From assembly GCF_024169925.1 (NCBI RefSeq), contig NZ_JALJXF010000001.1:1122001-1186000 (forward strand): a stretch of DNA of 64,000 nucleotides, in the 5' to 3' direction. Made by a program: the position numbers and the translations under genes. The stretch is from Methylorubrum extorquens (lineage in GTDB: Bacteria; Pseudomonadota; Alphaproteobacteria; Rhizobiales; Beijerinckiaceae). The notes beneath the pieces were generated by a model. It searched no databases, had not been told where the DNA came from, and saw nothing but the letters and a program-made list of their open reading frames with translations. Below, in pieces: positions 38,199 to 54,696 of the stretch; the first letter of the stretch is position 1; every line of letters starts with the position of its first letter.

Positions 38199-38318
38199 AT
38201 CGGGTTTCGAAAGGGATCATCCCTTTCGCGGGTCCAGGGCAGAGCCCTGGTTGAGGGAAGCCGGGGCGCTGCCCCGGCGCCCCGCCAAAGGGATGATGAT
38301 CCCTTTGGGAACCCGGAT
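38199..38318. repeat. Nested-hairpin intergenic repeat, family 3
   Basis: About 120 bp that consists almost wholly of palindromes: GAAAGGGAT/ATCCCTTTC (38209-38227), CCAGGGC/GCCCTGG (38234-38250), CCGGGGC/GCCCCGG (38261-38277) and CCAAAGGGAT/ATCCCTTTGG (38285-38308), inside weak outer arms. It fills the space between two convergent genes. I recall elements of this style in Methylobacterium genomes, but only one copy is present here. Confidence 0.7.
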
Positions 38319-40150: not shown

Positions 40151-40161
40151 TGCGGGCACCG

Positions 40162-41181
40162 TCACGCGGCGAGCGCGGCGCGGGCCGAGACCAGCGCGAG
40201 CCAGTTGCGGAACAGCCCGGCGGCGCCCTCCTGCCAATCGGCGGGGCGGGGCGGGGTCTCGGCCATGGTCGGGAAGTCGGCGTGCAGGGCCGGCGAGCGA
40301 TCGGCCCGCGCCACCGCGGCGAAGGTGTCGAGACGCAGGGCGGCCTCGTCGGCGTAGTAATTCTCGGGCAGCGCCGGGCAGATGTCCCGCTCGCCATCGA
40401 GGAAGCGGCCGACATCCCGGCGGTACTCGCGGGCGAGCGTGTCGCCGTCATATTCCGGGTGGCCCTGGAGGAAGACCATCGGGGCGCCGCCCTCACGGAC
40501 GAACAGATCGACGCCGACCCTCTCGGAGCGGCGCAGGATGCGGTAGCCGCGGTCGGTCAGCGCCTGTTCGGGCAGGTCGTTCCAGCGCGAATGCGGCACC
40601 GGCACGCGCGCCGGCATTCCGGCCAGCACCGGATGGTCGGCGACCGTGGTGCAGGCGTAAACGCCGGAATGCTTCGTCAACAGCGGCCGGCGCTCGATGC
40701 CATCAAGGTGCAGCACGGCCGCGTGCGCGGCCAGACACGAGAACAGGGTCGGGATGCCGCTGGCATCCGCCCAATCCACCACCGCTGCGAGCGCCGGGAA
40801 GAATGGCTCGTCGGCAAGGTGCTTGGCCTTCGGCTCGGCCCCGGTGACGACGAGGGCATCGAGCCCGGCTTCGGCCAAGGCCTCGTCAGCCCGCTTGCCC
40901 GGCGTCGCGTAGAAGCGGTCGAGATGCGCGCGGGCGAGGGGACCGCGCGGCACCGTGTCGAGGCTGAACAGGCGCAGCTCGACGCCTGGGCCGATCAGGC
41001 GCCGGAACTGCCGCTCCGTCTGCACCAGGGCGCTGTCGGGCATGTTGTTGAGGAGGCCGACGCGAAGCTTCGGCTGCACCGGCTCGGGCCACGCGAAGCC
41101 GCTGTCCTGGCCGCTGCCCTGGCCGAGATCCAGCTCTGCGGACCGGCTCACGGAGCGAATCGGGGTGCCGTGGTCCAGCAT
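40162..41181 (-). CDS. Homoserine O-acyltransferase, MetA family
   Basis: A MetA-family (glutamine-amidotransferase-fold) protein of 339 residues that acylates homoserine for methionine synthesis. Text matching the family: 'LRVGLLNNMPDSALVQTERQ', catalytic Cys149 in 'LFSCLAAHAAV', 'VPVPHSRWND', and His241/Glu243 in 'FLQGHPEYDGD'. The Cys to His spacing is close to that of E. coli MetA. The elbow differs from the common SCWGAQA. I cannot tell succinyl from acetyl use, but the neighbouring MetY prefers O-acetylhomoserine in this family. It follows metY by 34 nt. Confidence 0.85.
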   Translation of the reverse strand: MLDHGTPIRSVSRSAELDLGQGSGQDSGFAWPEPVQPKLRVGLLNNMPDSALVQTERQFRRLIGPGVELRLFSLDTVPRGPLARAHLDRFYATPGKRADEALAEAGLDALVVTGAEPKAKHLADEPFFPALAAVVDWADASGIPTLFSCLAAHAAVLHLDGIERRPLLTKHSGVYACTTVADHPVLAGMPARVPVPHSRWNDLPEQALTDRGYRILRRSERVGVDLFVREGGAPMVFLQGHPEYDGDTLAREYRRDVGRFLDGERDICPALPENYYADEAALRLDTFAAVARADRSPALHADFPTMAETPPRPADWQEGAAGLFRNWLALVSARAALAA

Positions 41182-41215: not shown

Positions 41216-42508
41216 TCAGGCCGCGAGCGCGGCGGGGGCTACGGCGGCGAGCGCCTGGTCGAGGTCTTCGAGAATGTCGTCGATATGCTCGATGCCGACG
41301 CTGAGCCGGATCGTCTCCGGCAGCACGCCCGCGACCCGCTGCTCGTCGGGGGTCATCTGGCGGTGCGTGGTCGAGGCCGGGTGGCAGGCGAGCGACTTGG
41401 CATCGCCAATGTTGACGAGGCGCTTCACCAGTTTCAGCGCGTCGTAGAACGTCTTGCCGCCCTCGAACCCGCCGGCGACCCCGAAGGTTAGGAGCGAGGA
41501 GCCTTCGCCCTTCAGGTACTTTCGCGCCATCGGGTGGTTCGGGCTGTCCACGAACCCGGCATAGTTCACCCAGGCGATCTGCGGATGCGCCCGCAGGTGC
41601 TCGGCGACCTTGCGCGCGTTGGCGACATGGCGCTCGACCCGCAGCGCCACCGTCTCGATGCCCTGCAGCAGCAGGAAGGCCGACATCGCCGGCAGCACCG
41701 CCCCAGTGGTGCGCTGGTAGACGCTGCGCGCCCGCGCGGCGAAGGCGCCGGGGCCGAAATGGTCGGCGTAGACGAGGCCGTGATAGGAGACGTCCGGCTG
41801 CGTGAACATCGGGAAGCGCTCAGGCGCCGCCTTCCAATCGAAGCGGCCGGAATCGACGATGATGCCGCCGAGCGTGGTGCCGTGGCCGCCCATGAACTTG
41901 GTGAGCGAGGCGATGACGATGTCGGCGCCGTAATCGATCGGCCGCATCAGGATCGGGGTCGGCACGGTGTTGTCGACCACCAGCGGCACGCCGTGGGCGT
42001 GGGCCACCGCCGCCAGCGCCTCGATATCGCAGATGTTGCCGGCCGGATTGCCGATCGATTCGCAGTAGACGGCGCGGGTGTCGCCATCGATCAGCGCCGC
42101 GATGTCCTCGGCCCGGTCGCTCGCGGCGAAGCGGCAGGTGATGCCCTGGCGCGGCAGGACGTGGGCCAGCAGCGTGTGCGTCGTGCCGTAGAGCTGGGGC
42201 ACCGCGACGATGTTGCCGCCGTGATCCGCCAGGGTGGCGATGGCATAGTGCAGGGCAGCCTGGCCGCTCGCGACTGCCAGCGCCGAATGGCCGCCCTCCA
42301 ATTCCGCCACGCGCCGTTCCAGCACCGCGACGGTGGGGTTGGCGATCCGGCTGTAGCGGAAGCCTTCCTCCTCCAAATTGAACAGGGCGGCGCCGTGGTC
42401 GGCGCTGTCGAAGGCGTAGGCGACGCTCTGGTAGATCGGCACCGCGACCGCGTGCGTGGCCGGATCGTGGTCGAAGCCGGCATGAAGGGCGATCGTTTCG
42501 CTGCGCAT
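41216..42508 (-). CDS. metY: O-acetylhomoserine sulfhydrylase (aminocarboxypropyltransferase)
   Basis: A PLP enzyme of the Cys/Met-metabolism family (430 residues) that makes homocysteine from O-acetylhomoserine and sulfide. It has 'ETIALHAGFDHDPATHAVAV', 'PIYQSVAYAFDSADHGAALF', the PLP lysine in 'ASLTKFMGGHGTTLGG' and the C-terminal 'LSVGIEHIDDILEDLDQAL'. ATG 42508 is chosen; the longer open frame has unlike text. It is the first gene of a minus-strand unit metY, metA-like, acyl-CoA synthetase. I saw no SAM riboswitch in the about 480-nt leader. Confidence 0.94.
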   Translation of the reverse strand: MRSETIALHAGFDHDPATHAVAVPIYQSVAYAFDSADHGAALFNLEEEGFRYSRIANPTVAVLERRVAELEGGHSALAVASGQAALHYAIATLADHGGNIVAVPQLYGTTHTLLAHVLPRQGITCRFAASDRAEDIAALIDGDTRAVYCESIGNPAGNICDIEALAAVAHAHGVPLVVDNTVPTPILMRPIDYGADIVIASLTKFMGGHGTTLGGIIVDSGRFDWKAAPERFPMFTQPDVSYHGLVYADHFGPGAFAARARSVYQRTTGAVLPAMSAFLLLQGIETVALRVERHVANARKVAEHLRAHPQIAWVNYAGFVDSPNHPMARKYLKGEGSSLLTFGVAGGFEGGKTFYDALKLVKRLVNIGDAKSLACHPASTTHRQMTPDEQRVAGVLPETIRLSVGIEHIDDILEDLDQALAAVAPAALAA

Positions 42509-42987
42509 GTCTTGAAGTCGTCCCGAAACCGCGAAGTTGGGGCCTTGGGCGCAAGGCCTGGACCAGACTTTGCCGTACCGGAACGGGATGAACTCTTGCG
42601 GGACTTGGTGAACGCGAATCTCCGACAAGTCTTGGTTGACGACTTCGAGCGAGGGGGAAATCGTCCGAGTGACAGCGGCTGTGGCCGCGCGGCAATGTCT
42701 TTCCGGTACAAACAACGCCGTCCGGCACCTGTCCCGAAACGGAGCAAGCGTGCCAAATCGGCCCTAGTCTTGATACGATGACAGATCGGCCGAAACTCGA
42801 CAGTCTTCGCCCGCCCCCGCGTTAGTGATAATCGTACAACCGACTTGTCATCCGATTAGAACCGTGGTTTCCGATAGGCTGAGCGCTTGCGGAACGATCC
42901 CGAACGCCTGCTCCCTTTGTCATCAACGCGTTCTCCTGCGCCGAACCGGCGCCCCGATCGGCGGAAGAGCGCTTCAGCGAGGATGCC
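42509..42987. other. Divergent intergenic region between metY and the cupin gene
   Basis: About 480 nt that must carry the leaders and promoters of both genes. It contains a small hairpin (GGCCTTG/CAAGGCC, 42541-42558) in the metY leader and an AT-richer patch around 42820-42870. No SAM-II or SAM-I consensus was recognised on either strand. Confidence 0.5.
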
Positions 42988-43437
42988 GTGTCGACCACAG
43001 CGATGATTCCGTCCGTAACTTCGGGCGAGCTGCGCGCCGCCCCGATCGAGCCGAGCTGGATCCAAGAGGGACAGCCCGTGGCCCGCAACACCATGCTCTC
43101 GCGCAGCGCCGACGGCATGGCCTGGACGCTCGTCTGGGACTGCACCGCCGGCCGGTTCGCGTGGCATTACGACATCGACGAGACGATCCACTTCATCGAA
43201 GGGTCGGCCACGATCAGCGACGGCGTCTCCCCGGCCAGGACCTTCCGGGCCGGCGACGTGCTGTTCATTCCCCGCGGCGCGGTCTGCCACTGGCATGTCG
43301 AGAGCTACGTGCGGAAGGTCGCCTTCTGCCGGAAGACCCAGCCGAAGGTCGTGACACTCGCCCTGCGCGCCGCCGGCAAGGCCAAGCGGATGCTGAGCCG
43401 CCGCGCCGGTTCGGGCGGCCAGCTCGAAGCCGCCTGA
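42988..43437 (+). CDS. Cupin-domain protein (cupin_3/EutQ-like)
   Basis: A 149-residue small beta-barrel protein starting at GTG with GAGGA five bases upstream. The single cupin fold shows 'RFAWHYDIDETIHFIEGSAT' and 'FRAGDVLFIPRGAVCHWHVE', which resemble the cupin_3 group (ureidoglycine aminohydrolase C-terminal or EutQ-like). The metal ligands typical of cupins are only partly kept (His, Glu, His). The function is unknown. The aminotransferase gene follows 28 nt later, so they may be co-transcribed. Confidence 0.85.
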   Translation: MSTTAMIPSVTSGELRAAPIEPSWIQEGQPVARNTMLSRSADGMAWTLVWDCTAGRFAWHYDIDETIHFIEGSATISDGVSPARTFRAGDVLFIPRGAVCHWHVESYVRKVAFCRKTQPKVVTLALRAAGKAKRMLSRRAGSGGQLEAA

Positions 43438-43465: not shown

Positions 43466-44332
43466 ATGACGACGCCGGAGCACGATACCTGGACGTTCTT
43501 CGAGGGCGCGTGGCACCCCGGCAACGTCCGGATCATGGGGCCGCGCACCCACGGCGCGTGGCTCGGCTCGACGGTGTTCGACGGCGCCCGCGCCTTCGAG
43601 GGCGTCGCGCCCGACCTCGACCTGCACCTCGCCCGGGTCAACCGCTCGGCCACCGCCCTCGGGCTCACGCCGAAGGTCGCGGTCGAGGAATGGACCCGCC
43701 TCGTCGCCGAGGGGCTGACGCGCTTTGCGCCCGAGGCCGAACTTTACATCCGGCCGATGTACTGGGCCGAGAGCGGGTTTGCCGGCGGCGTGCGCTTCGA
43801 CCCCGCCTCCACCAATTGGTGCCTGTCGCTCTACACGGCGCCGATGCCGCTGCCCTCGGGCGTCAAGGCGACGCTCTCGCCCTTCCGCCGCCCGTCGATC
43901 GAGACCGCTCCCGTCGATGCCAAGGCCGGCTGCCTCTACCCCAATGGCGCTCGGGCGCTGACCGAAGCGCTGTCGCGCGGTTTCGGCAATTGCCTGATGC
44001 TCGACGGGCTCGGCAACGTCGCCGAGTTCGCCAACGCCAATGCCTTCTTCGTGCGGGAGGGCATCGTCTACACGCCGGTCCCGAACGGCACGTTCCTGGC
44101 CGGCATCACCCGCGCCCGCGTCCTCGCGCTGCTGCGTGGGGCCGGCGTCCCGGTGGTGGAGAAGACGCTGCGCTACGAGGATTTTCTAAGCGCCGACGAG
44201 GTCTTCACCGCCGGCAACTTCGCCAAGGTCGCCCCGGTCACCGGGCTCGACGACGTGCGCTTCGAGCCGGGGCCGGTGTTTCGAAAGGCGCGCCAGCTTT
44301 ACTGGGATTTCGCGCATGGGCGGCTGTCGTAG
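43466..44332 (+). CDS. Class IV (branched-chain type) aminotransferase
   Basis: A fold-type IV PLP aminotransferase of 288 residues, the group that includes branched-chain aminotransferase, D-amino acid transaminase and aminodeoxychorismate lyase. Marks are 'GSTVFDGARAFEGVAPDLDL', the probable PLP lysine in 'DAKAGCLYPNGARAL', 'MLDGLGNVAEFANANAFFV' and 'TPVPNGTFLAGITRARVLAL'. It would transfer amino groups in the cytoplasm. The stop codon lies in a hairpin (44327-44365). Substrate unknown; being near the carrier-protein cluster could be relevant. Confidence 0.9.
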   Translation: MTTPEHDTWTFFEGAWHPGNVRIMGPRTHGAWLGSTVFDGARAFEGVAPDLDLHLARVNRSATALGLTPKVAVEEWTRLVAEGLTRFAPEAELYIRPMYWAESGFAGGVRFDPASTNWCLSLYTAPMPLPSGVKATLSPFRRPSIETAPVDAKAGCLYPNGARALTEALSRGFGNCLMLDGLGNVAEFANANAFFVREGIVYTPVPNGTFLAGITRARVLALLRGAGVPVVEKTLRYEDFLSADEVFTAGNFAKVAPVTGLDDVRFEPGPVFRKARQLYWDFAHGRLS

Positions 44333-44365: not shown

Positions 44366-44376
44366 GCGAATCCCGG

Positions 44377-44896: not shown

Positions 44897-46600
44897 TCAC
44901 CCGCCCGCCAGGGCCTTCTCGCGGATCGCCGTGAGGCTCATGCCCGGCGTGATCGCGTCGACCGAGAACTTCACGTGGACGATCGCTGGGCGCTGCGCCG
45001 CCCGAGCCTCCGCCAGAGCCGCCGGAAAATCCTCCGTCCGCTCCACGGTGAAACCGACGCCGCCGAAGGCGCGGGCATAGGCGGCGAAATCCGGGTTCAC
45101 GAGATCGGTCGCGAGGACGCGGCCGGGGAAATCGCGTTCCTGATGCATGCGGATCGTGCCGTAGCTCGCATTGTCGGCGACGATGCAGACGAGGTTCAGG
45201 CCGTACTGCACGGCGGTCGCGAATTCCTGGCCGTTCATCAGGAAATCGCCGTCGCCGTTGATCGAGATCACCGTGCGGTCGGGGAAGATCCGCTTCATCG
45301 CAACCGCCGCCGGCACGCCGTAGCCCATCGAGCCGGAGGTCGGCGCGAGGTGGGTCGCGGGGCGGCGGAAGCGGTAGAAGCGGTGGATCCAGGCGGCGTA
45401 GTTGCCCGCGCCGTTGCACAGGATCGCGTCCTCCGGCAGCGCCTCGCGTAAATGCACCATCACCTGCCCGAGATTGACCGGGCCGGGCTGCGGCGTCGGA
45501 GTCTCCGACCACGCCAGATAGTCCGCATGGGCCGCGCGGGTCTCCGCCGCCCACGGGACGGTGGCCGGCGCCGCGAGCCGCGCCAGGGCCGCCGCCATCC
45601 GGGCCGGCGCGGCGGTGATGCCGAGATGGGGCACGTAGACCCGGCCGAGTTCCTCCGCTCCGGGATGGATGTGGACGAGCCGGGTGCGGGGCGCCGGGAT
45701 GTCGAGGAGCGAGTAGGTCTGGCTCGCGACCTCGCCGAGGCGGCCCCCGAGCACGATCATCAGGTCGGCGGCCTTGGCCCGCGCCACCAGCTTCGGGTTG
45801 GCGGCAAGCCCGAGATCACCCGCGTAGTTCGGGTGCAGCGGGTCGAACAGCGGCAGGCGGCGGTAGCTCGTGGCCACCGGCAGATCGAAGGCCTCAGTGA
45901 AGCGGCAGATGTCGGCATAGGCCTGCTCGGTCCAGCGGCTGCCGCCGAGCACCAGGAAAGGGTTTTTCGCCTCAGCGAGCAGGGCGGCGAGACGCTCCAG
46001 ATCCTCCGCGCCGGGCGCCGCCTCGATGGCGGCGAAGGGCGGGGCCAGCGGGCCCTCTGCGGCGTCCTTCAACATGTCCTTCGGCAGCGCCACCACCACC
46101 GGGCCCGGCCGGCCGCCGGTGGCGGTGTGAAAGGCGCGCGAGACGTATTCCGGTATCCGCGCGCCGGTCTCGATCTCGGTGGCCCATTTCGCGATCGGCC
46201 CGAAGGCGGCGCGGTAATCGACCTCCTGCCACGCCTCGCGGTCGCGCAGACCCCGCTCGATCTGCCCGACGAACAGGATCATCGGCGTCGAATCCTGCTG
46301 GGCGATGTGGATGCCGGCCGAGGCGTTTGTGGCGCCGGGCCCGCGGGTGACGAAGCAGATGCCGGGCCGCCCCGTCGCCTTGCCATGCGCCTCCGCCATC
46401 ATCGCCGCGCCGCCCTCCTGGCGGCAGACGGTGAGCGCGATGCCCGATTCGTAGAGCGCGTCGAGCACCGGCAGGTAGCTCTCCCCCGGCACCGCGAAGA
46501 CGTGGGTGACGCCGTTGGCCGCGAGTTGATCCACGAGCGCCTGGGCGGCGGTCCGTCCGCCGGTTCGGGCGGGGAGGGCGGCGTCTGGGCTCTGGGACAT
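44897..46600 (-). CDS. Thiamine-diphosphate enzyme, acetolactate-synthase-like
   Basis: A 567-residue ThDP enzyme with the three usual domains. The N-terminal PYR domain has the cofactor-activating Glu in 'VCRQEGGAAMMAEAHGKATG', there is a central Rossmann-like domain, and the C-terminal PP domain has the GDG...N motif ('INGDGDFLMNGQEFATAV' to 'VADNASYGTI'). It is like acetolactate synthase large subunits or related benzoylformate decarboxylase/benzaldehyde lyase types; no small subunit gene is adjacent. ATG 46600 is used. It is divergent from the flavin reductase gene that opens the carrier-protein cluster. Confidence 0.88.
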   Translation of the reverse strand: MSQSPDAALPARTGGRTAAQALVDQLAANGVTHVFAVPGESYLPVLDALYESGIALTVCRQEGGAAMMAEAHGKATGRPGICFVTRGPGATNASAGIHIAQQDSTPMILFVGQIERGLRDREAWQEVDYRAAFGPIAKWATEIETGARIPEYVSRAFHTATGGRPGPVVVALPKDMLKDAAEGPLAPPFAAIEAAPGAEDLERLAALLAEAKNPFLVLGGSRWTEQAYADICRFTEAFDLPVATSYRRLPLFDPLHPNYAGDLGLAANPKLVARAKAADLMIVLGGRLGEVASQTYSLLDIPAPRTRLVHIHPGAEELGRVYVPHLGITAAPARMAAALARLAAPATVPWAAETRAAHADYLAWSETPTPQPGPVNLGQVMVHLREALPEDAILCNGAGNYAAWIHRFYRFRRPATHLAPTSGSMGYGVPAAVAMKRIFPDRTVISINGDGDFLMNGQEFATAVQYGLNLVCIVADNASYGTIRMHQERDFPGRVLATDLVNPDFAAYARAFGGVGFTVERTEDFPAALAEARAAQRPAIVHVKFSVDAITPGMSLTAIREKALAGG

Positions 46601-46897
46601 CGCTTCGATCTCGCTTGACGGCAGGGCGCGTCCCGGTTCGGGACCGCCCCTCGGCACATCCTGCGGTTCGTACCGGAACTGAACAATTTCCGGCCCGTCC
46701 AGCCGGGCCCTGGACTTGCACAGACGAGCCGCAAGGACAGGCAACAGCATAGAGATGAACCGATAACGTCCGGTTTCGACCGGGGCGAGACGGGCAAGTT
46801 TCACAAGGTCCCATTTCAGATCGACGAACGGATTGCGAACCATGCTTGCGCGCCGGAGATCATCGACACCCCGCGACCGCGCCCGCCCGTTCGACGG
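46601..46897. promoter_or_regulatory. Divergent region between ThDP enzyme and flavin reductase genes
   Basis: About 300 nt between two divergent starts, so promoters for both are expected here. No repeat or recognisable operator is seen. Confidence 0.35.
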
Positions 46898-47461
46898 ATG
46901 GGGCGCGTGATGGGCGCCGCCGCCGCGCTGGCGCCGGAGCCCGCCATGGACGGGGGGCTCCTCAAGCAGGCGATGCGCCGCCTCGTCGGGGGGGTCGTCG
47001 TGATCACCGCCGGAAGCGGCGAGGACCGGGTCGGGCTCACCGCGACTTCGGCGGTCTCCCTCTGCGTCGATCCGCCGACCATGCTGGTCTGCGTCAACCG
47101 AAGCTCGTCGAGCTGGCCGGTCATCGCCCGGCGGCGGCATTTCTGCGTCAGCATCCTCGGAGCCGGGCAGCAGGGCATCGCCGAGCGCTTCGCCGGCATC
47201 GGCGGCCTGCGGGGCGCCGCCCGCTATCTCGGCGCGGATTGGACGATCATGGAATCGGGTGCCTCCGGCCTCACCGAGGCGCAGGCCATCGTCGATTGCA
47301 CGCTGGCGGAGGTCATCGAGCGGCACAGCCACGCCATTCTGCTGGGCGCGGTGCGCGAGGTGCGGCTGAACCGGGCGGAACGGCCCGCCCTGGCCTATGG
47401 CGGCGGGCGCTTCATCGGGATCTCACCGGATGGATCGCCCCCCGACACGGACCGAATCTAA
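46898..47461 (+). CDS. Flavin reductase (FMN/FAD, HpaC/DIM6-NTAB type)
   Basis: A 187-residue flavin reductase-like protein that would reduce free FMN or FAD with NAD(P)H and hand it to a two-component flavoenzyme. Family text: 'AMRRLVGGVVVITAGSGEDR', 'GLTATSAVSLCVDPPTMLVC', 'SSSSWPVIARRRHFCVSILG' and 'HAILLGAVREVRL'. It is about 160 nt upstream of a carrier protein gene and two genes before an acyl-CoA-dehydrogenase-fold protein, a likely oxygenase partner. The start could be 46898 or 46910. Confidence 0.88.
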   Translation: MGRVMGAAAALAPEPAMDGGLLKQAMRRLVGGVVVITAGSGEDRVGLTATSAVSLCVDPPTMLVCVNRSSSSWPVIARRRHFCVSILGAGQQGIAERFAGIGGLRGAARYLGADWTIMESGASGLTEAQAIVDCTLAEVIERHSHAILLGAVREVRLNRAERPALAYGGGRFIGISPDGSPPDTDRI

Positions 47462-47620
47462 AACCCGGCCCAACCAAATCAGATTAACCAGCAACATACT
47501 TAACATCAATAAACGCTTTTTCCGCATAATCAGCAAGAGTATTTATAAAACCGCGGATGTATTGCAGTCGAAGCGGCCACAGACCAATCCAGTCGGCACA
47601 GGCTAAAGGGAAAGAGGACA
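47462..47620 (+). promoter_or_regulatory. AT-rich leader upstream of carrier protein gene
   Basis: About 160 nt of much lower GC than the surroundings, with short AT-rich runs such as ATTTATAAAA and TTAACATCAATAAA. The carrier gene has AAAGAGG three bases before its ATG. It probably holds a promoter separate from the flavin reductase gene; no exact -10/-35 is claimed. Confidence 0.45.
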
Positions 47621-47890
47621 ATGTCGCAAGCGGTGACAGCCAGCGTCGCGGATCGGACCATGGGCCTCGCCTACGCGATCGCCGCCCGCCACGCGATCAA
47701 GCCGGAATTCGAGAAGTCGGACGCCCTGGTCGATGTCGGGCTCTCGTCCCTCGATCTCGTCAACCTGATGGTCGCGGTCGAGGCGGAGTTCGACATCATG
47801 ATCCCGCCGGCGAGCCTGACGCCGAAGAACTTCTACTCGATCGAGGCCATCGCCCGGATGGTCGAGAGCGTGCGCGGCCCGAGCGCCTGA
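47621..47890 (+). CDS. Acyl/aminoacyl carrier protein
   Basis: An 89-residue stand-alone carrier protein. The phosphopantetheine site is 'DVGLSSLDLVNLMVAVEAEF', where Ser43 aligns with the attachment Ser (the usual DSL reads SSL). The helix pattern and acidic residues after it fit the fold. Immediately downstream are an acyl-CoA-dehydrogenase-fold gene and an aminoacyl:carrier-protein ligase, so this protein is the likely amino-acid carrier of that ligase. It is the first gene after an AT-rich promoter region. Confidence 0.9.
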   Translation: MSQAVTASVADRTMGLAYAIAARHAIKPEFEKSDALVDVGLSSLDLVNLMVAVEAEFDIMIPPASLTPKNFYSIEAIARMVESVRGPSA

Positions 47891-47956
47891 CCCTCCCTCA
47901 CGAACATCCCTGACGTGCCGCCGGCCCGGCCGGCTTCAGTCCAACGGAGCCCAGCC

Positions 47957-49153
47957 ATGACGATGCAGCCCACGCCGGACGGTCGAGTCGGCGATGCCGC
48001 CGACCTTCTGACCCGCGCCGCCGCCGCCGCCGCGATCGCCGCCGCCCATGCGGATGCGGTGGATCGCGACGGGCGCTTCCCCGAGGAAGCCGTCGCCGCC
48101 TTCCGTTCGCAGCGCCTGCTCGGCGCGGCCGTGCCGATCGAACTCGGCGGGGAGGGCGCCTCGGTCCGGATGCTGGCCGAGATCGCCTACGTGCTGGGCC
48201 GCGCCTGCGCCTCCTCGGCGATGATCTTCGCCATGCACCAGACCAAGATGGCCTGCCTGATCCGGCACGGCCGCGGCGAGCCCTGGCAGGACGGCCTCCT
48301 GCGCCGCATCGCCGACGAACAGCTCCTGATGGCCTCCTCGACGACCGAGGGCCAAGGCGGCGGCAACGTCCGCTCCTCCGCCGCCGCGATCGAGGCCGAC
48401 GGCGAGGCGATCACCCTGGAGCGGGCCGCGACCGTGATCTCCTACGGCGCACAGGCCGACGGCGTCGTCACCGTCGCCCGCCGCTCGGCCGAGGCCGGAG
48501 CGTCCGACCAAGTGCTCTGCATCTTCCTGAAGGAGGATTACACCCTGGAGCGCCTGAGCGGCTGGGAAACGCTCGGCATGCGCGGCACCTGCAGCAGCGG
48601 CTTCCGCCTCGTCGCCCGCGGGATTCCGCAGCAGGTGCTCGCCGCCCGCTACGGAGACATCCACAACCAGACCATGACGCCGGTCTCGCACATCCTGTGG
48701 TCGAGCGCCTGGGCCGGCATCGCGGCCTCCGCCGTCGATCGCGCCCAGGCCTTCACCCGCACGGCGATGCGGGGTGCGGGCGGCGTCGCCCCGCCCGGCG
48801 CGCTGCACTATGCGCGCGCTGTCTCCAGCCTGAAGCAGGCCCGCGCCCTCATCACGCAGGCGCTCGACACCTTCGAGGGCACGCAAGGCGACCCGGCGGC
48901 GCTGGCCGGCCTCGACGTGCAGACCGCGCTGACGATGCTCAAGGTCGAGGTCTCGGAACTCGCCGTCGCCACCGTGTCGAGCGCGCTGCGCGCCAACGGG
49001 CTGGCCGGCTACCGCCAGGACGGTGCGTTCAGCATCGGCCGGGCGCTGCGCGACATCCTCTCGGCGCCGATCATGATCCACAACGACCGGATCATGGCCA
49101 ACCTCGCCACCGCGACGCTGATGTCGCCCGTCGCCGCCTCGCTGAGCGCCTGA
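47957..49153 (+). CDS. Acyl-CoA-dehydrogenase-fold flavoprotein lacking the catalytic Glu
   Basis: A 398-residue member of the acyl-CoA dehydrogenase (ACAD) superfamily: N-terminal helical domain, central beta domain ('LMASSTTEGQGGGNVRSSAA', 'GWETLGMRGTCSSGFRLVAR') and C-terminal helical domain ('SIGRALRDILSAPIMIHNDR'). At the place of the usual 'IYEGT' catalytic Glu it reads IMIHND, with His375. This is typical of ACAD-fold flavin monooxygenases and unlike ordinary dehydrogenases. With the nearby flavin reductase and carrier protein it could oxidise a carrier-bound amino acid. It lies 66 nt after the carrier gene. Confidence 0.88.
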   Translation: MTMQPTPDGRVGDAADLLTRAAAAAAIAAAHADAVDRDGRFPEEAVAAFRSQRLLGAAVPIELGGEGASVRMLAEIAYVLGRACASSAMIFAMHQTKMACLIRHGRGEPWQDGLLRRIADEQLLMASSTTEGQGGGNVRSSAAAIEADGEAITLERAATVISYGAQADGVVTVARRSAEAGASDQVLCIFLKEDYTLERLSGWETLGMRGTCSSGFRLVARGIPQQVLAARYGDIHNQTMTPVSHILWSSAWAGIAASAVDRAQAFTRTAMRGAGGVAPPGALHYARAVSSLKQARALITQALDTFEGTQGDPAALAGLDVQTALTMLKVEVSELAVATVSSALRANGLAGYRQDGAFSIGRALRDILSAPIMIHNDRIMANLATATLMSPVAASLSA

Positions 49154-49196
49154 AGGCGCCGACCCGCTCCCGTCTCGCCCGAAGGACTTGCTCGCC

Positions 49197-50129
49197 ATGA
49201 ACATGCCCGTGATGAACGCGCCGGCCTCGCCGCCCGCGACCGACCCGCTCGACGCCCTGTTCGACGCGATGTTCAAGCCGATGAACGCGCAGGGCGTCTA
49301 CGCCCGCACCGGCGCCTACGAGTCGGTGGTGGAGGCGCTGGCCGCCTTCATCTCGGCGCGGCGCGAGGACGGCACGGAGGTGTTCCGCTTCCCGCCGGTG
49401 ATGAGCCGCGCGCATCTGGAGCGGCACGGCTACCTCAAGAGCTTCCCGAACCTTCTCGGCTGCGTCTCCTGCCTGGAAGGCAGCGAGGCGGAGATCCGCG
49501 CCTCCGCCGACAAGCACCTCGAGGGCGGCGACTGGACCACGGGCCTCGAAACCGCCGACCTCGTTCTGACCCCGGCCGCCTGCTACCCGGTCTACCCGAT
49601 CGCCGCCGCCCGCGGGGCGGTGCCCGCCACCGGCTACCGCTTCGACGTCGCCTGCGACTGCTTCCGCCGCGAGCCCTCGCGCCATCTCGACCGGCTGCAA
49701 TCCTTCCGGATGCGCGAATACGTCCGCATCGGCACGCCGGAGCAGATCGTCGCCTTCCGCGAGAGCTGGATCGCCACCGCCACCGCCATGGCCGACGAAC
49801 TCGGGCTCCCCTACACGGTGGAGACCGCGAGTGACCCGTTCTTCGGCCGGCTCGGCCAGATCATGGCCTTCAGCCAGCTCGAACAGGCCTTGAAGTTCGA
49901 GCTGCTGATCCCGCTGCGGGGCGCGGCCGCCGGCACCGCCTGCATGAGCTTCAACTATCACCGCGAGCATTTCGGCACGACCTGGGGCCTGAACCTGGAG
50001 GACGGCGAGCCCGCCCATACCGGCTGCGTCGCCTTCGGCATGGATCGCCTCGCAGTGGCCCTGTTCGCCACCCACGGCGAGAGCATCGACGCGTGGCCGG
50101 CCGCGGTCCGCGCGGCGCTGAAGCTCTGA
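49197..50129 (+). CDS. Amino acid--[carrier protein] ligase (truncated seryl-tRNA-synthetase homologue)
   Basis: A class II aminoacyl-tRNA-synthetase-like catalytic domain of 310 residues without a tRNA-binding N-terminal domain. These ligases make an aminoacyl-adenylate (Gly or Ala in the Bradyrhizobium enzyme) and load it on the phosphopantetheine of a small carrier protein. Motif 2 is 'CDCFRREPSRHLDRLQSFRM' and motif 3 is 'GMDRLAVALF'. Probable zinc ligands are Cys129, Glu174 and Cys277, with the same spacing that I recall for the Bradyrhizobium enzyme. ATG 49197 (AAGGA upstream) is chosen over TTG 49188. It follows the flavoprotein gene by 43 nt. Confidence 0.92.
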   Translation: MNMPVMNAPASPPATDPLDALFDAMFKPMNAQGVYARTGAYESVVEALAAFISARREDGTEVFRFPPVMSRAHLERHGYLKSFPNLLGCVSCLEGSEAEIRASADKHLEGGDWTTGLETADLVLTPAACYPVYPIAAARGAVPATGYRFDVACDCFRREPSRHLDRLQSFRMREYVRIGTPEQIVAFRESWIATATAMADELGLPYTVETASDPFFGRLGQIMAFSQLEQALKFELLIPLRGAAAGTACMSFNYHREHFGTTWGLNLEDGEPAHTGCVAFGMDRLAVALFATHGESIDAWPAAVRAALKL

Positions 50130-50153
50130 ACGCGACACGCCCGGAGCCGTCCG

Positions 50154-51083
50154 ATGCCGCTCGATCCGCATGTCAGCCGCTTCCTCGACATGATGGCGCT
50201 CGGGAGTTCGGACGGCATCACCCTCGACGCCCGCCGGGAGGGGATGCGCGGGCTTAGCCGCCTCGCCGGGCTGAGCGCCGAGGGCGTCGCGACCCACGAC
50301 CTCGTCCTGCCGGGCCCGGCCGGGCCGCTTTCCGCGCGGCTCTATGCGCCGGAGGGCAGCACGGGCGGCCCCGGCCTCGTCTACCTGCACGGCGGAGGCC
50401 TCGTGACAGGCGGCCTCGACACCCATGACGGGATCTGCCGGGTGCTCGCCGAGTCCGGCAGCCTCCGCGTCGTCTCGGTCGATTACCGGCTCGCGCCCGA
50501 ACACCCGTTCCCGGCCGCCCTCGACGACGCGCTGGCGGCGCTGGATTCGGTCGCCGCGCAGGCGGACGCGCTCGGGATCGATCCGGCCCGGCTCGGCATC
50601 GGTGGCGATTCCGCCGGCGCCGGCCTCGCGGCACGGGTTTGCCAGGAGCGGCGCGGCGCGATCCGGGCGCAGCTCCTGATCTGCCCCGTGCTCGACGTGC
50701 ACGGCAACCACGCCTCGCGCCGCGATTTCGCCCGCGGCTACTTCCTCGACGAGGCGACGATCCGGCGCGACCTTGCGGCCTGCGGGCCTGAAGCCGCCGC
50801 GCCGTCGCCCCGTCTCTCGCCCCTGCGCGAGGCGGACCTGACCGGCCTGCCGCCGGCCCGCATCCACACCGCGGAATACGATCCGGTTCGCGACGAGGGG
50901 GCGGCCTATGCCGAGCGTCTGAAACGGGCGGGCATCGCGACCGCCCACACCGTTCACGCCGGCATGGTCCACTTCTTCTACGGCCTCGGGCGGCTGGTAC
51001 CGCGCGGCCGGCCGATCCTGTCCGAGATCGCCCGCGACTTCGGCGAATGCCTCCGCGGCGCCCCCCTTTCTATCCATCCTTGA
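50154..51083 (+). CDS. Alpha/beta hydrolase, hormone-sensitive-lipase (HSL) type
   Basis: A 309-residue esterase-family protein of the HSL group. The oxyanion-hole motif is 'YLHGGGLVTGG', the nucleophile Ser153 lies in 'GDSAGAGLAARV', and the probable Asp and His are in 'EYDPVRDEGAAYAERL' and 'HAGMVHFFYG'. In this cluster it could release a product from a carrier thioester or cleave an ester in the product. It is 24 nt after the ligase gene and 11 nt before the second carrier gene, so co-transcription is likely. Confidence 0.9.
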   Translation: MPLDPHVSRFLDMMALGSSDGITLDARREGMRGLSRLAGLSAEGVATHDLVLPGPAGPLSARLYAPEGSTGGPGLVYLHGGGLVTGGLDTHDGICRVLAESGSLRVVSVDYRLAPEHPFPAALDDALAALDSVAAQADALGIDPARLGIGGDSAGAGLAARVCQERRGAIRAQLLICPVLDVHGNHASRRDFARGYFLDEATIRRDLAACGPEAAAPSPRLSPLREADLTGLPPARIHTAEYDPVRDEGAAYAERLKRAGIATAHTVHAGMVHFFYGLGRLVPRGRPILSEIARDFGECLRGAPLSIHP

Positions 51084-51094
51084 GGAGAGCCCCC

Positions 51095-51352
51095 ATGTCC
51101 CTGCGTGAGACCGTCTTTTTCGAGATCGCCGCGATCGCCGCCGAGCAGGAGAAGCGGATGCCGCCGATCACCGACGACCTGGTGATGCTCGACACCGAGT
51201 TCGACTCGCTCTGCTTCGCGCTCCTCGTCGCGCGGATGGAAGATCTCACCGGCGCCGACCCGTTCGGCGAGATGGACGCCTCCGACCTGCCGGTGACGGT
51301 CGGCGACCTCGTCGCCCTCTACGACCGCGCCGCGGCCCGGCAGGCGGCCTGA
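51095..51352 (+). CDS. Second stand-alone carrier protein
   Basis: An 85-residue carrier protein with GAGGAG upstream of the ATG. The attachment site is Ser38 in 'LDTEFDSLCFALLVARMEDL'. It differs strongly from the first carrier of the cluster (47621-47890), so the two probably serve different partners. The AMP ligase gene starts 5 nt after its stop, and an adenylation enzyme directly behind a carrier gene is a common loading pair. Confidence 0.88.
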   Translation: MSLRETVFFEIAAIAAEQEKRMPPITDDLVMLDTEFDSLCFALLVARMEDLTGADPFGEMDASDLPVTVGDLVALYDRAAARQAA

Positions 51353-51357
51353 GCCCG

Positions 51358-52719
51358 ATGATCCTGCGCGAGCGCCTTCTGGCGGCGGGCGGTCTTGAGG
51401 GCCTGTTCCTGTCCGACTACCGCAGCAAACAAGATGTCGCCGGGATCGTCTCCGGTGAGCCTGACGCCGCCGCGACCGCGGCGCTCGCCGGCCGCCGGGT
51501 GCTGCTCGCCGTCGGCGGGCAGATGGCGGCGGGCCGGGCCATGATCGCGCTCGACGGTCTCGCGGCCCGGCTCGCCCTCGTCCCCCCGAAGCTGGCGCCG
51601 GAGCACATCGCCCGGATCGCGTCGGATTCCGAGGCCGAGATCTGCGTCACAGACGCCGAGGGACTGCCCCCCGACGCGCTGCCGGGCCTGCCCCGGATCG
51701 ACGCGGCCGACGCGTTCCGCGCGGGCTCCGAGACGCCGCGGGAGACGGAATGGGCACTGGCCACCTCCGGCACCACCGGCGCACCGAAGCTCGTCGCCCA
51801 CACCCTCGACGGCTTGGCCGGCGGCATCAACACCGCCGCCGCGCCGGAGCCCGGCACAGTGTGGAGCACCTTCTACGACATCCGCCGCTACGGCGGCTTG
51901 CAGGTCTTCCTGCGGGCGATGCTCGGGCCGTCCTCGCTCGTGCTCTCCGACGCAGGCGAGCCGGTGCGCGACTATCTCGTCCGCGTCGGCGCGGCGGGCG
52001 TCACCCACATCCTCGGCACGCCCTCGCACTGGCGCCTCGCCCTGATGAGCGCGGCGCTCGACCGACTCAGCCCCCGCTACGTGCGGCTCTCGGGTGAGAT
52101 CGCCGACCAGAACATCCTCGATGCGCTTGGCGACACCTTCCCCGAGGCGCGCATCGCCCATGCCTACGCCTCGACCGAGGGCGGGGTCGGCTTCACCGTC
52201 GAGGACGGGCGGGAGGGTTTTCCGTCCGCGCTGATCGGCACCCGCGCCGGGATCGAGATCACCGTGCGCGAGGACAGCCTGTTCGTGCGCTCCGGCCGCA
52301 CCGGGCGGCGCTATCTGGGTGCCGTGCCCGAGGCGCTGATCGCCGAGGATGGCTTCATCGATACCGGCGACCTCGTGGAGCGAAGGGGCGAGCGCTACCA
52401 CTTCCTCGGCCGGCGCAGCGGCGTGATCAATGTCGGCGGCGCCAAGGTGCAGCCTGAGGAAGTCGAGACCGTCATCAACGTCTTCCCCGGCGTGTCGATG
52501 TCCCGGGTGCGGGCGCGACCCAACCCGATCCTCGGCGCGGTGGTCGAAGCGGAGGTGGTCCTGCACGCCGACGCGGGCGCGGATCAGGCGGCGCTGAAGA
52601 AGGCGATCATTGCCCATTGCCGCCCGCGCTTGGCCGGCCACAAGGTGCCGGCGAGCGTGAAGTTCGTGGACACGCTGCCGATCACGTCCGGCGGCAAGCT
52701 GGTGCGGAGGGGCGCGTGA
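51358..52719 (+). CDS. AMP-dependent acyl/aryl ligase (stand-alone adenylation enzyme)
   Basis: An adenylate-forming ligase, short for the family (453 residues). The AMP motif is 'ALATSGTTGAPKLVAHTLDG'; further marks are 'HAYASTEGGVGFTVEDGREG', 'IDTGDLVERRGERYHFLGRR', 'GVINVGGAKVQPEEVE' and the C-terminal catalytic Lys in 'LPITSGGKLVRRG'. The N-terminal subdomain is reduced to about 130 residues. It probably activates a carboxylic acid and loads the preceding carrier protein. The stop overlaps the next gene's GTG by 4 nt. Confidence 0.9.
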   Translation: MILRERLLAAGGLEGLFLSDYRSKQDVAGIVSGEPDAAATAALAGRRVLLAVGGQMAAGRAMIALDGLAARLALVPPKLAPEHIARIASDSEAEICVTDAEGLPPDALPGLPRIDAADAFRAGSETPRETEWALATSGTTGAPKLVAHTLDGLAGGINTAAAPEPGTVWSTFYDIRRYGGLQVFLRAMLGPSSLVLSDAGEPVRDYLVRVGAAGVTHILGTPSHWRLALMSAALDRLSPRYVRLSGEIADQNILDALGDTFPEARIAHAYASTEGGVGFTVEDGREGFPSALIGTRAGIEITVREDSLFVRSGRTGRRYLGAVPEALIAEDGFIDTGDLVERRGERYHFLGRRSGVINVGGAKVQPEEVETVINVFPGVSMSRVRARPNPILGAVVEAEVVLHADAGADQAALKKAIIAHCRPRLAGHKVPASVKFVDTLPITSGGKLVRRGA

Positions 52720-53474
52720 GCGACGTTTCCAGGGACGGCCTCAAGACCGGGCGCCTCGTCGTCGTCACCGGGGCGAGCCGCGGGCTCGGCCTCGCCATGG
52801 CCGAAACGCTCGCCGCCGACGGGTTCCGCGTGGTGGCGCTCGCCCGCCGCCCGAGCGAGGCGCTGGAGGCAGCGCAACGGGCCGCCGGTCCCGGCCGGAT
52901 CGAATTCATGGCGGCCGACCTCGGCGAGATCGACGCGCTCCAGCCGCTCGCCCAGCGCATCCGGGCCGAGCACGGGCCGGTCTACGGCCTCGTCAACAAC
53001 GCAGCCCTCGGCACGCCCGGCCTGCTGACGACGATGCCGGCCGCCAGAATCGCCGAACTCGTCCACCTCAACACCCTCGCGCCGATGGTGCTGACCAAGT
53101 ACCTCGCCCGCGGGATGATGACGGCCGGCGCGGGGCGGATCGTCAATGTCAGCTCGATCATAGCCTTCACTGGCTACAACGCGCTCTCGGTCTACGCGGC
53201 CACCAAGGCCTCGATGATCGGCTTCACCAAGTCGCTCGCCCGCGAGGTCGGGCGGCTGGGGGTGACGGTGAACGCGGTGGCGCCCGGCTTCATCGAGACG
53301 GCGATGACCGGCGAGATGGCCGAGGCCGAGCGCGGGCGTGTAGCCAACCGCAGCGCCCTCAAGCGTTTGGCCGAGCCGCAGGATGTGGCCGACGCCGTCG
53401 CCTACCTGATGTCGGACCGCGCCCGCAACGTCACCGGCACCGTTCTGACCATCGACGCCGGCAGCACTGCCTGA
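52716..53474 (+). CDS. Short-chain dehydrogenase/reductase, FabG-like
   Basis: A classical SDR of 252 residues starting at GTG in a 4-nt overlap with the ligase. It has 'VVVTGASRGLGLAMAETLAA', 'GLVNNAALGTPGLL', 'GRIVNVSSIIAFTGYNALSV' with YxxxK in 'YAATKASMIGF', and 'VAPGFIETAMT'. The text is close to 3-oxoacyl-ACP reductases, so reduction of a carrier-bound keto intermediate is plausible. It is the last gene of the carrier-protein cluster; the next gene has its own AT-rich upstream region. Confidence 0.92.
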   Translation: MSDVSRDGLKTGRLVVVTGASRGLGLAMAETLAADGFRVVALARRPSEALEAAQRAAGPGRIEFMAADLGEIDALQPLAQRIRAEHGPVYGLVNNAALGTPGLLTTMPAARIAELVHLNTLAPMVLTKYLARGMMTAGAGRIVNVSSIIAFTGYNALSVYAATKASMIGFTKSLAREVGRLGVTVNAVAPGFIETAMTGEMAEAERGRVANRSALKRLAEPQDVADAVAYLMSDRARNVTGTVLTIDAGSTA

Positions 53475-53751: not shown

Positions 53752-54696
53752 ATGACTGGGGTGAACGAAACCGTGGAAGACGTCCCACCCGCGGGGGAGG
53801 GCGTTCGCAGCACGCGGGCCAAGGTCCGCTGCCGCACCATCGAGGAGGACGACCTCGCATCCGTCGTGCGGTTGCTGCGGGTCGGCTTCCCCGACCGTTC
53901 CGAAACCTATTGGCGCACCGGGCTTGACCGGCACCGCACCCAGCCGCTGCCCGACGACGTGCCGCGCTACGGCTATGTGCTGGAACGGGACGGGGCGATC
54001 GTCGGCGTCCTGCTCGCCCTGTACCGGACGGTGACGGACGAGGCCGGCACGCATCTGCGCTGCAACTTGTCGAGCTGGTACGTGCTGCCGGAGTTCCGCG
54101 CGCTCGGCACGCTGCTCGACGGCTTCGCCATGCGCGACCGGCGGGTGACCTACACCAACGTCTCGCCCGCCCCGCAGACTTGGCAGATGCACAAGGCGCG
54201 CGGCTTCAAGCCGGTCTGCTCGGGCCAGATGCTCGTCATGCCGCTGCTCGCCGGCTTCGGCCGGGGGCGCCGCGTCCGCGCGGCCACGCCTGAGACCCTG
54301 CGCCTGCTGCCGGAGCCGGAGGCCCGGCTGGTGGCCGACCACATCGCCTATGGCTGCATCGGCCTCGTCTGTTCGGATGGCGAGAAGGCGTGGGCCGTCC
54401 TGTTCCAGCGGCGCGCCATCAAGCTGCGGCCGGGGGAGACGCGCTGGCCACGCCTGCCTTGCCTCCAGCTCGTCTATCGCTCGACGGCGCTCGACCTGTC
54501 CGCCTTCCTCGGCGCGATCGGCCGGCATCTCATCCTGCACCACGCCATGCCGTGGTTCGTGCTCGATGCCGTGGGCAAGCTGCCCGGCCTCGTCGGACAC
54601 TTCTTCGAGGGCCGCGCCCCGAAATACGCCCGCGGCCCGAACCCGCCGGCCACCGGCGACCTCACCTATACCGAGGTCGTCCTGTTCGGCGCCTGA
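53752..54696 (+). CDS. GNAT-like acyltransferase
   Basis: A protein of about 314 residues that looks like a GNAT-fold acetyl/acyltransferase: an N-terminal acceptor part ('RTIEEDDLASVVRLLRVGFP'), a central sheet ('YGYVLERDGAIVGVLLALYR', 'SSWYVLPEFRALGTLLDGFA') and 'QMHKARGFKPVCSGQML', typical of the GNAT C-terminal motif. The last 130 residues are an extra domain with no family that I can name. Similar proteins occur in exopolysaccharide loci, where they could acylate sugars. ATG 53752 is chosen; the open frame extends upstream into AT-rich DNA. Confidence 0.7.
   Translation: MTGVNETVEDVPPAGEGVRSTRAKVRCRTIEEDDLASVVRLLRVGFPDRSETYWRTGLDRHRTQPLPDDVPRYGYVLERDGAIVGVLLALYRTVTDEAGTHLRCNLSSWYVLPEFRALGTLLDGFAMRDRRVTYTNVSPAPQTWQMHKARGFKPVCSGQMLVMPLLAGFGRGRRVRAATPETLRLLPEPEARLVADHIAYGCIGLVCSDGEKAWAVLFQRRAIKLRPGETRWPRLPCLQLVYRSTALDLSAFLGAIGRHLILHHAMPWFVLDAVGKLPGLVGHFFEGRAPKYARGPNPPATGDLTYTEVVLFGA

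What the first reader, a model, noticed from the sequence alone, without database searches (positions are those of the whole stretch)
46898..53474. Carrier-protein cluster built round an aminoacyl:carrier-protein ligase
A truncated seryl-tRNA-synthetase homologue (49197-50129) with putative Zn ligands C129/E174/C277 lies between two carrier proteins, a flavin reductase, an ACAD-fold flavoprotein, a hydrolase, an AMP ligase and an SDR. Aminoacyl:carrier-protein ligases are known to load Gly or Ala on carrier proteins (Bradyrhizobium work), but I know of no assigned end product. Here the set of tailoring enzymes looks complete enough to make a small amino-acid-derived metabolite.
Basis: partly seen in the sequence, partly recalled or inferred. 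Interest (0 to 1): 0.85.

Follow-up and report, generated by a model that had tools for sequence, protein, structure and literature searches.

The report
Glycine-carrier and homoserine amino-acid gene cluster
A Methylobacterium gene cluster in which an enzyme that loads an amino acid (probably glycine) on a small carrier protein is inherited together with homoserine-modifying enzymes, which gives an enzyme of long-unknown purpose concrete pathway partners and makes its end product searchable.

Summary
In detail: all eight named genes are at the stated places, and the ligase is a close relative of crystallised Bll0957 of Bradyrhizobium (E 7.7e-137). The cluster is larger than reported, about 38318-54696. 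It adds an acyl-CoA synthetase, a MetA-type homoserine acyltransferase (HTS), an O-acetylhomoserine-sulfhydrylase homologue (MET), a cupin, a branched-chain-type aminotransferase, a ThDP enzyme and a tandem-GNAT acyltransferase. New result: this ligase clade (type 1) and the MET orthologue co-occur. In the home genus 24 of 24 type-1 genomes have MET and 1 of 87 others does; in the genus of G361 (taken to be Bradyrhizobium) it is 64 of 64 and 0 of 34, often far apart on the chromosome. None of 48 home-genus genomes with only the other ligase clade (type 2) has MET. Best reading: a dedicated pathway that oxidises glycyl-carrier protein and joins it, or its product, to a homoserine-derived C4 unit by PLP gamma-replacement, followed by acylation. 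The product is unknown. The flavin reductase is not in the conserved set (7 of 80 loci). No biochemistry was possible; the co-occurrence tests are not corrected for phylogeny.

The parts
38318..40237 (-). AMP0: FATP-type acyl-CoA synthetase (probable start near 40150)
   Evidence: NCBIfam PRK08279 751.8 bits, cut-off 625; in 14 of 80 ligase loci and 11 of 12 compact loci of the G361 genus
40162..41181 (-). HTS: MetA-type homoserine O-acyltransferase
   Evidence: NCBIfam MetA 436.6 bits, cut-off 358; GHPEY motif and a Cys (SCLAAHA) in the sequence; at 56% identity or more in the same 25 of 111 genus genomes as MET
41216..42715 (-). MET: O-acetylhomoserine-sulfhydrylase-family PLP enzyme (probable start near 42508)
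   Evidence: TIGR01326 580.6 bits, cut-off 495.1; PLP-lysine motif SLTKF kept; co-occurs with the type-1 ligase
42988..43437 (+). CUP: EutQ-like cupin
   Evidence: PF05899 68.1 bits; 14 of 80 loci
43466..44332 (+). AT4: branched-chain-type class IV aminotransferase
   Evidence: PRK13356 467.3 bits, cut-off 262; 18 of 80 loci; at 70% identity or more in all 25 MET genomes and 14 others of 111
44897..46621 (-). TPP: acetolactate-synthase-like ThDP enzyme
   Evidence: PRK08199 884.6 bits, cut-off 539; 13 of 80 loci
46898..47461 (+). FR: flavin reductase, lineage-specific addition
   Evidence: PF01613 110.2 bits; 7 of 80 loci
47621..47890 (+). CP1: carrier protein, GLSSLD motif, presumed partner of the ligase
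   Evidence: PF00550 27.5 bits; nearest NCBIfam PRK07081 51 bits, below its cut-off of 72; 80 of 80 loci
47957..49153 (+). ACAD-fold flavoprotein without a Glu at the usual acyl-CoA dehydrogenase position; probable monooxygenase
   Evidence: 80 of 80 loci
49197..50129 (+). LIG: aminoacyl:carrier-protein ligase, type 1 (Bll0957-like)
50154..51083 (+). HYD: HSL-family alpha/beta hydrolase
   Evidence: PF07859 207.6 bits; 21 of 80 loci, 0 of 12 compact loci
51095..51352 (+). CP2: second carrier protein (FDSL motif)
   Evidence: no hit itself; orthologue over the PF00550 cut-off; 19 of 80 loci
51358..52719 (+). AMP: short AMP-forming acyl ligase, probably charging CP2
   Evidence: PF00501 57.6 and PF13193 42.6 bits; 19 of 80 loci, in company with CP2 and SDR
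52716..53474 (+). SDR: FabG-like reductase (GTG start overlapping the AMP stop)
   Evidence: PF00106 170.5 bits; start read; 19 of 80 loci
53752..54696 (+). GNA: tandem-GNAT acyltransferase without a Pfam or NCBIfam family
   Evidence: no family; AlphaFold model pLDDT 82 matches tandem GNATs and N-myristoyltransferases; 68 of 80 loci

Best explanation
The cluster is one biosynthetic pathway for a small acylated non-protein amino acid built from two amino-acid units. Step 1 (close homology, not assayed): the ligase adenylates an amino acid, most likely glycine, and loads it on CP1. Step 2 (inferred): the ACAD-fold flavoprotein oxygenates the carrier-bound glycine, most likely on nitrogen; reduced flavin comes from the adjacent reductase here and presumably from other reductases in relatives. 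Step 3 (family level): HTS acylates homoserine. Step 4 (inferred): MET displaces that acyl group by PLP gamma-replacement and couples C4 of the 2-aminobutyrate unit to a nucleophile derived from the CP1-bound or released, oxidised glycine. Step 5 (inferred): AMP, CP2 and SDR (and the acyl-CoA synthetase AMP0) prepare an acyl group that the tandem-GNAT protein puts on an amine. The hydrolase, ThDP enzyme, aminotransferase and cupin are accessory or tailoring steps. That the carrier module and the homoserine module serve one pathway is the best-supported part; the bond that MET makes is the least certain.
For: Bll0957-type ligase with invariant C129/E174/C277. CP1, ACAD and LIG in 80 of 80 loci. 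Co-occurrence of type-1 ligase with MET: 24 of 24 against 1 of 87, and 64 of 64 against 0 of 34. HTS (56% identity or more) is in the same 25 genomes as MET, and in the second genus in 64 of 64 against 3 of 34, one of them weak. Linked and unlinked arrangements both occur: LIG-MET-HTS run together in compact loci among L101-L112 and in L128, while MET lies 0.9 to 2.2 Mb from the ligase by contig coordinates in G412, G432 and G433. Copy numbers match in 62 of 64 genomes of the G361 genus. MetX-like proteins in 111 of 111 home-genus genomes and nine further MET homologues in G000 (the three listed are 45-49% identical) leave ordinary methionine synthesis covered. ACAD: the usual acyl-CoA dehydrogenase Glu position is Ile, followed by His/Asn-Asn-Asp, in 11 of 11 sequences. 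GNA: tandem GNAT fold.
Against: No enzyme of this locus was assayed. Fisher values are not corrected for shared ancestry. In the class sample MET orthologues also occur in three genomes without a ligase hit: G246 (contig starts at MET), G320 and G239. In the home genus G419 has MET and HTS without a ligase hit. G494 and G540 keep HTS without LIG or MET. Sequence and fold scores do not separate oxygenases from dehydrogenases for the ACAD, and its best PDB match, the dehydrogenase 7p98, has Thr (YTGT) at the same position, so lack of Glu there does not exclude a dehydrogenase. MET passes the ordinary OAH-sulfhydrylase cut-off, so sulfide or methanethiol could still be its nucleophile. AMP0, AMP, CP2, SDR, AT4, TPP and CUP are not within 10 kb of most Bradyrhizobium ligase loci and were not sought elsewhere in those genomes.
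Confidence: 0.5

Rival explanations
1. Cell-surface sugar modification: the carrier-bound, monooxygenated amino acid is transferred to an amino sugar, as Iyer et al. proposed in 2010 for this ligase family.
For: Note in proof of PMC2922099 (section read whole) describes ligase, ACP, redox enzyme, glycosidase and an uncharacterised ORF. Type-2 loci here carry DUF1839 and, in L118-L120, a GH2-like glycosidase family. In the window exopolysaccharide genes flank the cluster, and in Bradyrhizobium-type MET-HTS loci a polysaccharide-deacetylase gene follows HTS (L060 and L113 scanned; same families in L063, L114, L117).
Against: Type 1 and type 2 ligases fall on two sides of a branch with 100/100 support in a 23-sequence tree. 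DUF1839 is in 0 of 80 type-1 loci and not in the window. None of 48 home-genus genomes with only a type-2 ligase has MET. In L071, one Bradyrhizobium ligase locus, none of seven flanking genes scanned is a polysaccharide gene.
Confidence: 0.18
2. HTS and MET are an ordinary extra homocysteine or methionine supply; co-occurrence reflects shared ancestry or a pathway that merely consumes methionine or SAM.
For: HTS and MET pass the cut-offs of the ordinary MetA and OAH-sulfhydrylase families. The tests ignore phylogeny. G320 and G239 have MET and HTS without a ligase hit. In L071, genes of the PNP_UDP_1 and IF-2B families, which look like the methylthioadenosine salvage genes mtnP and mtnA (recalled), lie beside CP1.
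Against: MetX-like in 111 of 111 genomes and nine further MET homologues in G000. Sharp identity gap (81 to 50% in one genus, 69 to 51% in the other). LIG directly next to MET in compact loci. Copy-number match in 62 of 64. Association with type-1 and not type-2 ligases.
Confidence: 0.2
3. The ACAD-fold protein is a dehydrogenase that makes imino- or glyoxylyl-CP1, which the ThDP enzyme or the aminotransferase then elaborates.
Against: No Glu at the aligned usual position; nitrososynthase, KijD3 and DszC are among the hits with scores close behind; a flavin reductase adjoins it in the window.
Confidence: 0.27
4. The product is a rhizobitoxine- or aminoethoxyvinylglycine-like enol-ether amino acid.
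For: The C-terminal part of RtxA resembles OAH sulfhydrylase and serves as dihydrorhizobitoxine synthase; Bradyrhizobium makes rhizobitoxine (PMC3222319, passages).
Against: No desaturase among the 15 genes scanned and no aminotransferase fusion on MET.
Confidence: 0.1

Closest known systems
Bll0957 aminoacyl:carrier-protein ligase of Bradyrhizobium (PDB 3mey, 4h2s and others)
   Same: E 7.7e-137 over residues 4-308; the 63 loci L038-L100, mostly Bradyrhizobium and Rhodopseudomonas, encode ligases 65-68% identical to the window's; bll0957 and an acyl-CoA dehydrogenase gene bll0958 are listed together in PMC10888616 (passages)
   Different: No product or homoserine link was named in any text I could reach
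Type-2 aaCP ligase loci with DUF1839 and glycosidase (the arrangement of Iyer et al. 2010, PMC2922099)
   Same: Ligase and ACAD-fold redox enzyme, with a carrier protein in the published description
   Different: DUF1839 and glycosidase instead of HTS, MET and GNAT; separate ligase clade. That the uncharacterised ORF of Iyer et al. (Atu2574) is DUF1839 was not tested
RtxA / rhizobitoxine pathway
   Same: Homoserine-derived amino acid made with an OAH-sulfhydrylase-like enzyme
   Different: No fused aminotransferase, no desaturase, and a carrier-protein module that rhizobitoxine lacks (the last from recall)
Valanimycin VlmH/VlmR/VlmL/VlmA logic
   Same: ACAD-fold N-hydroxylase, flavin reductase, SerRS homologue and GNAT-fold transferase (VlmL/VlmA from PMC2922099, passage; VlmH fold recalled)
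   Different: VlmL works with tRNA; here a truncated ligase presumably charges a carrier protein
PLP gamma-replacement enzymes on O-acyl-homoserine in secondary metabolism (FUB7; LolC recalled)
   Same: MET scores 442 bits against FUB7 in the PDB
   Different: Ordinary OAH sulfhydrylases score about the same (451 and 446 bits), so no specific relation is shown

Membership tests
Aminoacyl:carrier-protein ligase (Bll0957 type) | SerRS-like class II core without a tRNA-binding N-terminal domain | tested here: met
   310 aa; NCBIfam PRK07080 471.8 bits, cut-off 357; the SerRS models and chain match only by their C-terminal part
Aminoacyl:carrier-protein ligase (Bll0957 type) | Zn ligands Cys-Glu-Cys | tested here: met
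   C129, E174, C277 invariant in 10 of 10 sequences; that these are the ligands is recalled
Aminoacyl:carrier-protein ligase (Bll0957 type) | Cognate carrier protein encoded beside it | tested here: met
   CP1 over the PF00550 cut-off, in 80 of 80 loci
Aminoacyl:carrier-protein ligase (Bll0957 type) | Loads Gly or Ala on carrier protein and not on tRNA | not testable with these tools
   needs an assay
ACAD-fold flavin monooxygenase (N-oxygenase type) | ACAD fold | tested here: met
ACAD-fold flavin monooxygenase (N-oxygenase type) | No Glu at the usual acyl-CoA dehydrogenase position | tested here: met
   I374 in 11 of 11; not exclusive, since dehydrogenase 7p98 lacks it too; the model is of low confidence there; identity of the Glu position recalled
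ACAD-fold flavin monooxygenase (N-oxygenase type) | Closer to oxygenases than to dehydrogenases | tested here: inconclusive
   scores overlap, best match a dehydrogenase
ACAD-fold flavin monooxygenase (N-oxygenase type) | Dedicated flavin reductase | tested here: inconclusive
   near the ligase in 7 of 80 loci only
OAH/OAS sulfhydrylase family | Family score and PLP lysine | tested here: met
   TIGR01326 over cut-off; SLTKF
MetA homoserine O-acyltransferase | Family score and His/Glu motif | tested here: met
   PRK05368 over cut-off; GHPEY present
Type-2 aaCP ligase / DUF1839 / glycosidase system | DUF1839 beside the ligase | tested here: not met
   0 of 80 loci and none in the window
Rhizobitoxine cluster | RtxA fusion and RtxC desaturase | tested here: not met
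   MET has PLP-enzyme domain hits only, over one region; no desaturase among the 15 genes scanned
Modular NRPS | Condensation domain in the cluster | tested here: not met
   no PF00668 among the 15 genes of 38318-54696 scanned; the NRPS at 11467-17630 is separate

The most novel reading that the evidence does not exclude
MET uses an N-hydroxylated glycine unit, bound to CP1 or released, as nucleophile on O-acyl-homoserine and forms an aminooxy (canaline-type N-O-C) amino acid, later N-acylated by the tandem GNAT: a new class of hydroxylamine-ether amino acid whose glycine half is loaded by an aminoacyl-tRNA-synthetase relative and built on a carrier protein.
Probability: 0.17. Interest if true: 0.88.

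Novelty: new variant of a known kind. Interest (0 to 1): 0.64.

Why it matters
Aminoacyl:carrier-protein ligases have been known, with crystal structures, since about 2010, but I found no text that names their product. Splitting them into two clades, and showing that the Bll0957-like clade is inherited together with a homoserine-activating pair across two genera and in linked and unlinked arrangements, gives a concrete pathway hypothesis, names the enzymes to combine in one tube, and predicts which mutants must lack the same compound. Many of the hosts are plant-associated or nodule bacteria, so the product may bear on those lifestyles.

Tried and rejected
Rejected: the NRPS at 11467-17630 as part of the system (C-A-T and C-T-TE genes; about 20 kb from the cluster, beyond the flanks examined in other loci, so its conservation was not tested). 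Rejected: the flavin reductase as a core member (7 of 80 loci). Set aside: the exopolysaccharide genes as functional partners; in 81 loci with the window, the window's Wzy-type gene 55015-56385 has its family in 3 and the Wzz-type gene in 10, but a polysaccharide deacetylase follows HTS in some Bradyrhizobium-type loci, which is counted for the rival. Considered: the joint increase of bll0957, bll0958 and bll1105 (metZ) in a Bradyrhizobium phaR mutant (PMC10888616, passages) as support; left out because bll1105 was not shown to be the MET orthologue. Fold and sequence searches could not separate oxygenase from dehydrogenase. A comparison of 50 MET orthologue rows with three paralogues of G000 gave 15 distinguishing positions but no functional reading. 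The first ligase tree, with a long outgroup row (L013), was uninformative; it was rebuilt without that row and without L004, L005, L006 and L012. A correlation of ligase and MET distances (r 0.84, 0 of 999 permutations, 38 rows, some of them from the same genome) is not used, because relatedness alone can give it. Counts left out: a 97-residue ligase fragment in G547 was dropped before the copy-number count. In the class sample only the best 4 or 5 candidates per genome were scored. Ten paper searches found no text naming a product or the homoserine link: 40 of 122 listed; 20 of 36 listed; only open-licence papers are held and the Mocibob 2010 paper is not, so this is weak evidence of novelty.

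Full report
Where it is. G000 has one match to this ligase.

Checking the observation. All eight genes are present with the stated families. The ligase passes the NCBIfam model for amino acid--[acyl-carrier-protein] ligase (471.8 bits, cut-off 357) and matches Bll0957 in the PDB at E 7.7e-137 over residues 4-308. C129, E174 and C277 are invariant in a 10-sequence alignment reaching down to 46% identity. CP1 has the carrier motif GLSSLD and CP2 FDSL (sequences); CP2 has no family hit itself but an orthologue passes PF00550.

How large the cluster is. By tblastn with bit-score limits of my choice, of 80 loci CP1, ACAD and LIG are in 80, GNA in 68, MET 21, HYD 21, CP2 19, AMP 19, SDR 19, AT4 18, HTS 16, AMP0 14, CUP 14, TPP 13 and FR 7. 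Much of the wider set is found together in Rhodopseudomonas (L045, L050, L059, L075), Bosea (L036), several Methylobacterium (for example L028, L032) and two betaproteobacterial MAGs (L040, L051), in different orders and strands. The two MAG loci share a further gene between MET and CP1 and another between HYD and CP2; scanned in L040, these are a PLP decarboxylase and a SnoaL-like protein. Twelve compact loci from the G361 genus (L101-L112) hold, in the fullest cases, SDR-AMP-CP2-AMP0-CP1-ACAD-LIG-MET-HTS-GNA-AT4: LIG, MET and HTS in 12 of 12 (they were picked for LIG beside MET), CP1, ACAD, CP2, AMP and AMP0 in 11, SDR and GNA in 9, AT4 in 8, CUP and TPP in 5, HYD and FR in 0. So the functional unit in the window is about 38318-54696.

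Co-occurrence. In 111 genomes of the home genus, a ligase of at least 75% identity is in 24 genomes; a MET orthologue of at least 81% is in those 24 and in G419 (90% complete, 730 contigs), and the next best MET homologue listed is 50%. HTS of at least 56% is in exactly those 25 genomes; five further matches lie at 34-37%. In 98 genomes of the G361 genus the ligase (at least 60%) is in 64, MET (at least 69%) in the same 64, and in the other 34 the best is 51%. HTS (at least 40%) is in the 64 and in G494 and G540, with a weak hit in G569. Fisher values are 1.9e-23 and 4.0e-27 but take genomes as independent, which they are not. Copy numbers of ligase and MET agree in 62 of 64; the exceptions are G504 (3 against 2, two of its ligases giving the same score) and G570 (2 against 1, where a second HTS copy is split in two). 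In the home genus ligase and MET are on different contigs in G393, G414, G429 and G478 and 0.9-2.2 Mb apart by contig coordinates in G412, G432 and G433. In a class-wide sample of 385 genomes, 4 of 4 genomes with a ligase of at least 60% have MET of at least 65%, and 3 others have MET without a ligase hit: G246, where the contig starts at MET and goes on with HTS, AMP0, SDR, AMP, CP2 and GNA, and G320 and G239, where of the 15 families only MET and HTS are found in the 20 kb at the limits used. G494 and G540 hold what look like decayed clusters without LIG, ACAD and MET.

Controls. HTS and MET are probably not the only route to methionine: a MetX-like protein (best match 412-477 bits; below the curated cut-off of 500, which none of the 14 control genomes reached either) is in 111 of 111 genomes, and G000 has nine further MET homologues, of which the three listed are 45-49% identical. 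AT4, another cluster gene, is less strict: at 70% or more in the 25 MET genomes and 14 others. Ligases of the second clade are the specificity control: 48 home-genus genomes have a ligase of 51-57% identity and no type-1 ligase (two more, G455 and G456, have only marginal hits), and none of them has the MET orthologue.

Two ligase clades. In a tree of 23 ligases, seven of 47-54% identity form one side of a branch with 100/100 support; the other 51-57% ligases of the genus are assigned to this clade by identity only. DUF1839 was found in 7 fetched loci, all of this second clade (L007 and L118 are the same locus), in none of the 80 type-1 loci and not in the window; L118-L120 also share a GH2-like glycosidase family and a double alpha/beta-hydrolase family. 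The window's ligase belongs to the other clade. Two facts still favour a surface role: the exopolysaccharide genes that flank the cluster here and a polysaccharide-deacetylase gene that follows HTS in L060 and L113.

Mechanism. See Best explanation. Shown here: gene content, families, conserved motifs, co-occurrence and clade split. Inferred: substrate of the ligase (from Bll0957, whose glycine preference is recalled; PMC5370406 passages say Gly or Ala), reaction of the flavoprotein, nucleophile of MET, order of steps, and the product.

What is known and what is new. A review of 2022 (PMC9437257, passages) treats these ligases as enzymes that attach amino acids to carrier proteins; ten paper searches (listed in Tried and rejected) found no held paper that names a product or links them to homoserine enzymes. 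The finding is a new variant of a known kind: a carrier-protein amino-acid pathway started by an aminoacyl-tRNA-synthetase relative, coupled to an O-acyl-homoserine gamma-replacement module.

Noticed in passing
window 11467-17630: A separate two-gene NRPS (C-A-T, then C-T-TE) about 20 kb from the cluster.
   Followed up: partly
window 34260-36500, 55015-64000: Exopolysaccharide genes (Wzy-type ligases, Wzz/GNVR protein, beta-helix protein, glycosyltransferase, polysaccharide deacetylase) on both sides of the cluster.
   Followed up: partly
L118, L119, L120: Second clade of aaCP ligases with ACAD-fold protein, DUF1839, GH2-like glycosidase family and a double alpha/beta-hydrolase family.
   Followed up: yes
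L135, L136: What look like decayed versions of the cluster without ligase, flavoprotein and MET but with HTS and CP1.
   Followed up: partly
L040:2820-4240, L040:8163-8540: A betaproteobacterial MAG locus with a PLP decarboxylase and a SnoaL-like protein inside the cluster; a second MAG (L051) has family members at the same places.
   Followed up: partly
L030:11846-12736 (same family in L028): An enoyl-CoA hydratase family gene between the hydrolase and the SDR in two Methylobacterium loci.
   Followed up: no
L071:2603-7839: Beside CP1 in a Bradyrhizobium locus lie PNP_UDP_1 and IF-2B family genes (like methylthioadenosine salvage genes), a HAD hydrolase, a trypsin-like gene and an FMO-like monooxygenase gene; their families recur in 47-53 of 81 loci.
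   Followed up: partly
PMC10888616 Table 1: bll0957, bll0958 and metZ bll1105 are all raised at RNA and protein level in a Bradyrhizobium phaR mutant; whether bll1105 is the MET orthologue is open.
   Followed up: partly
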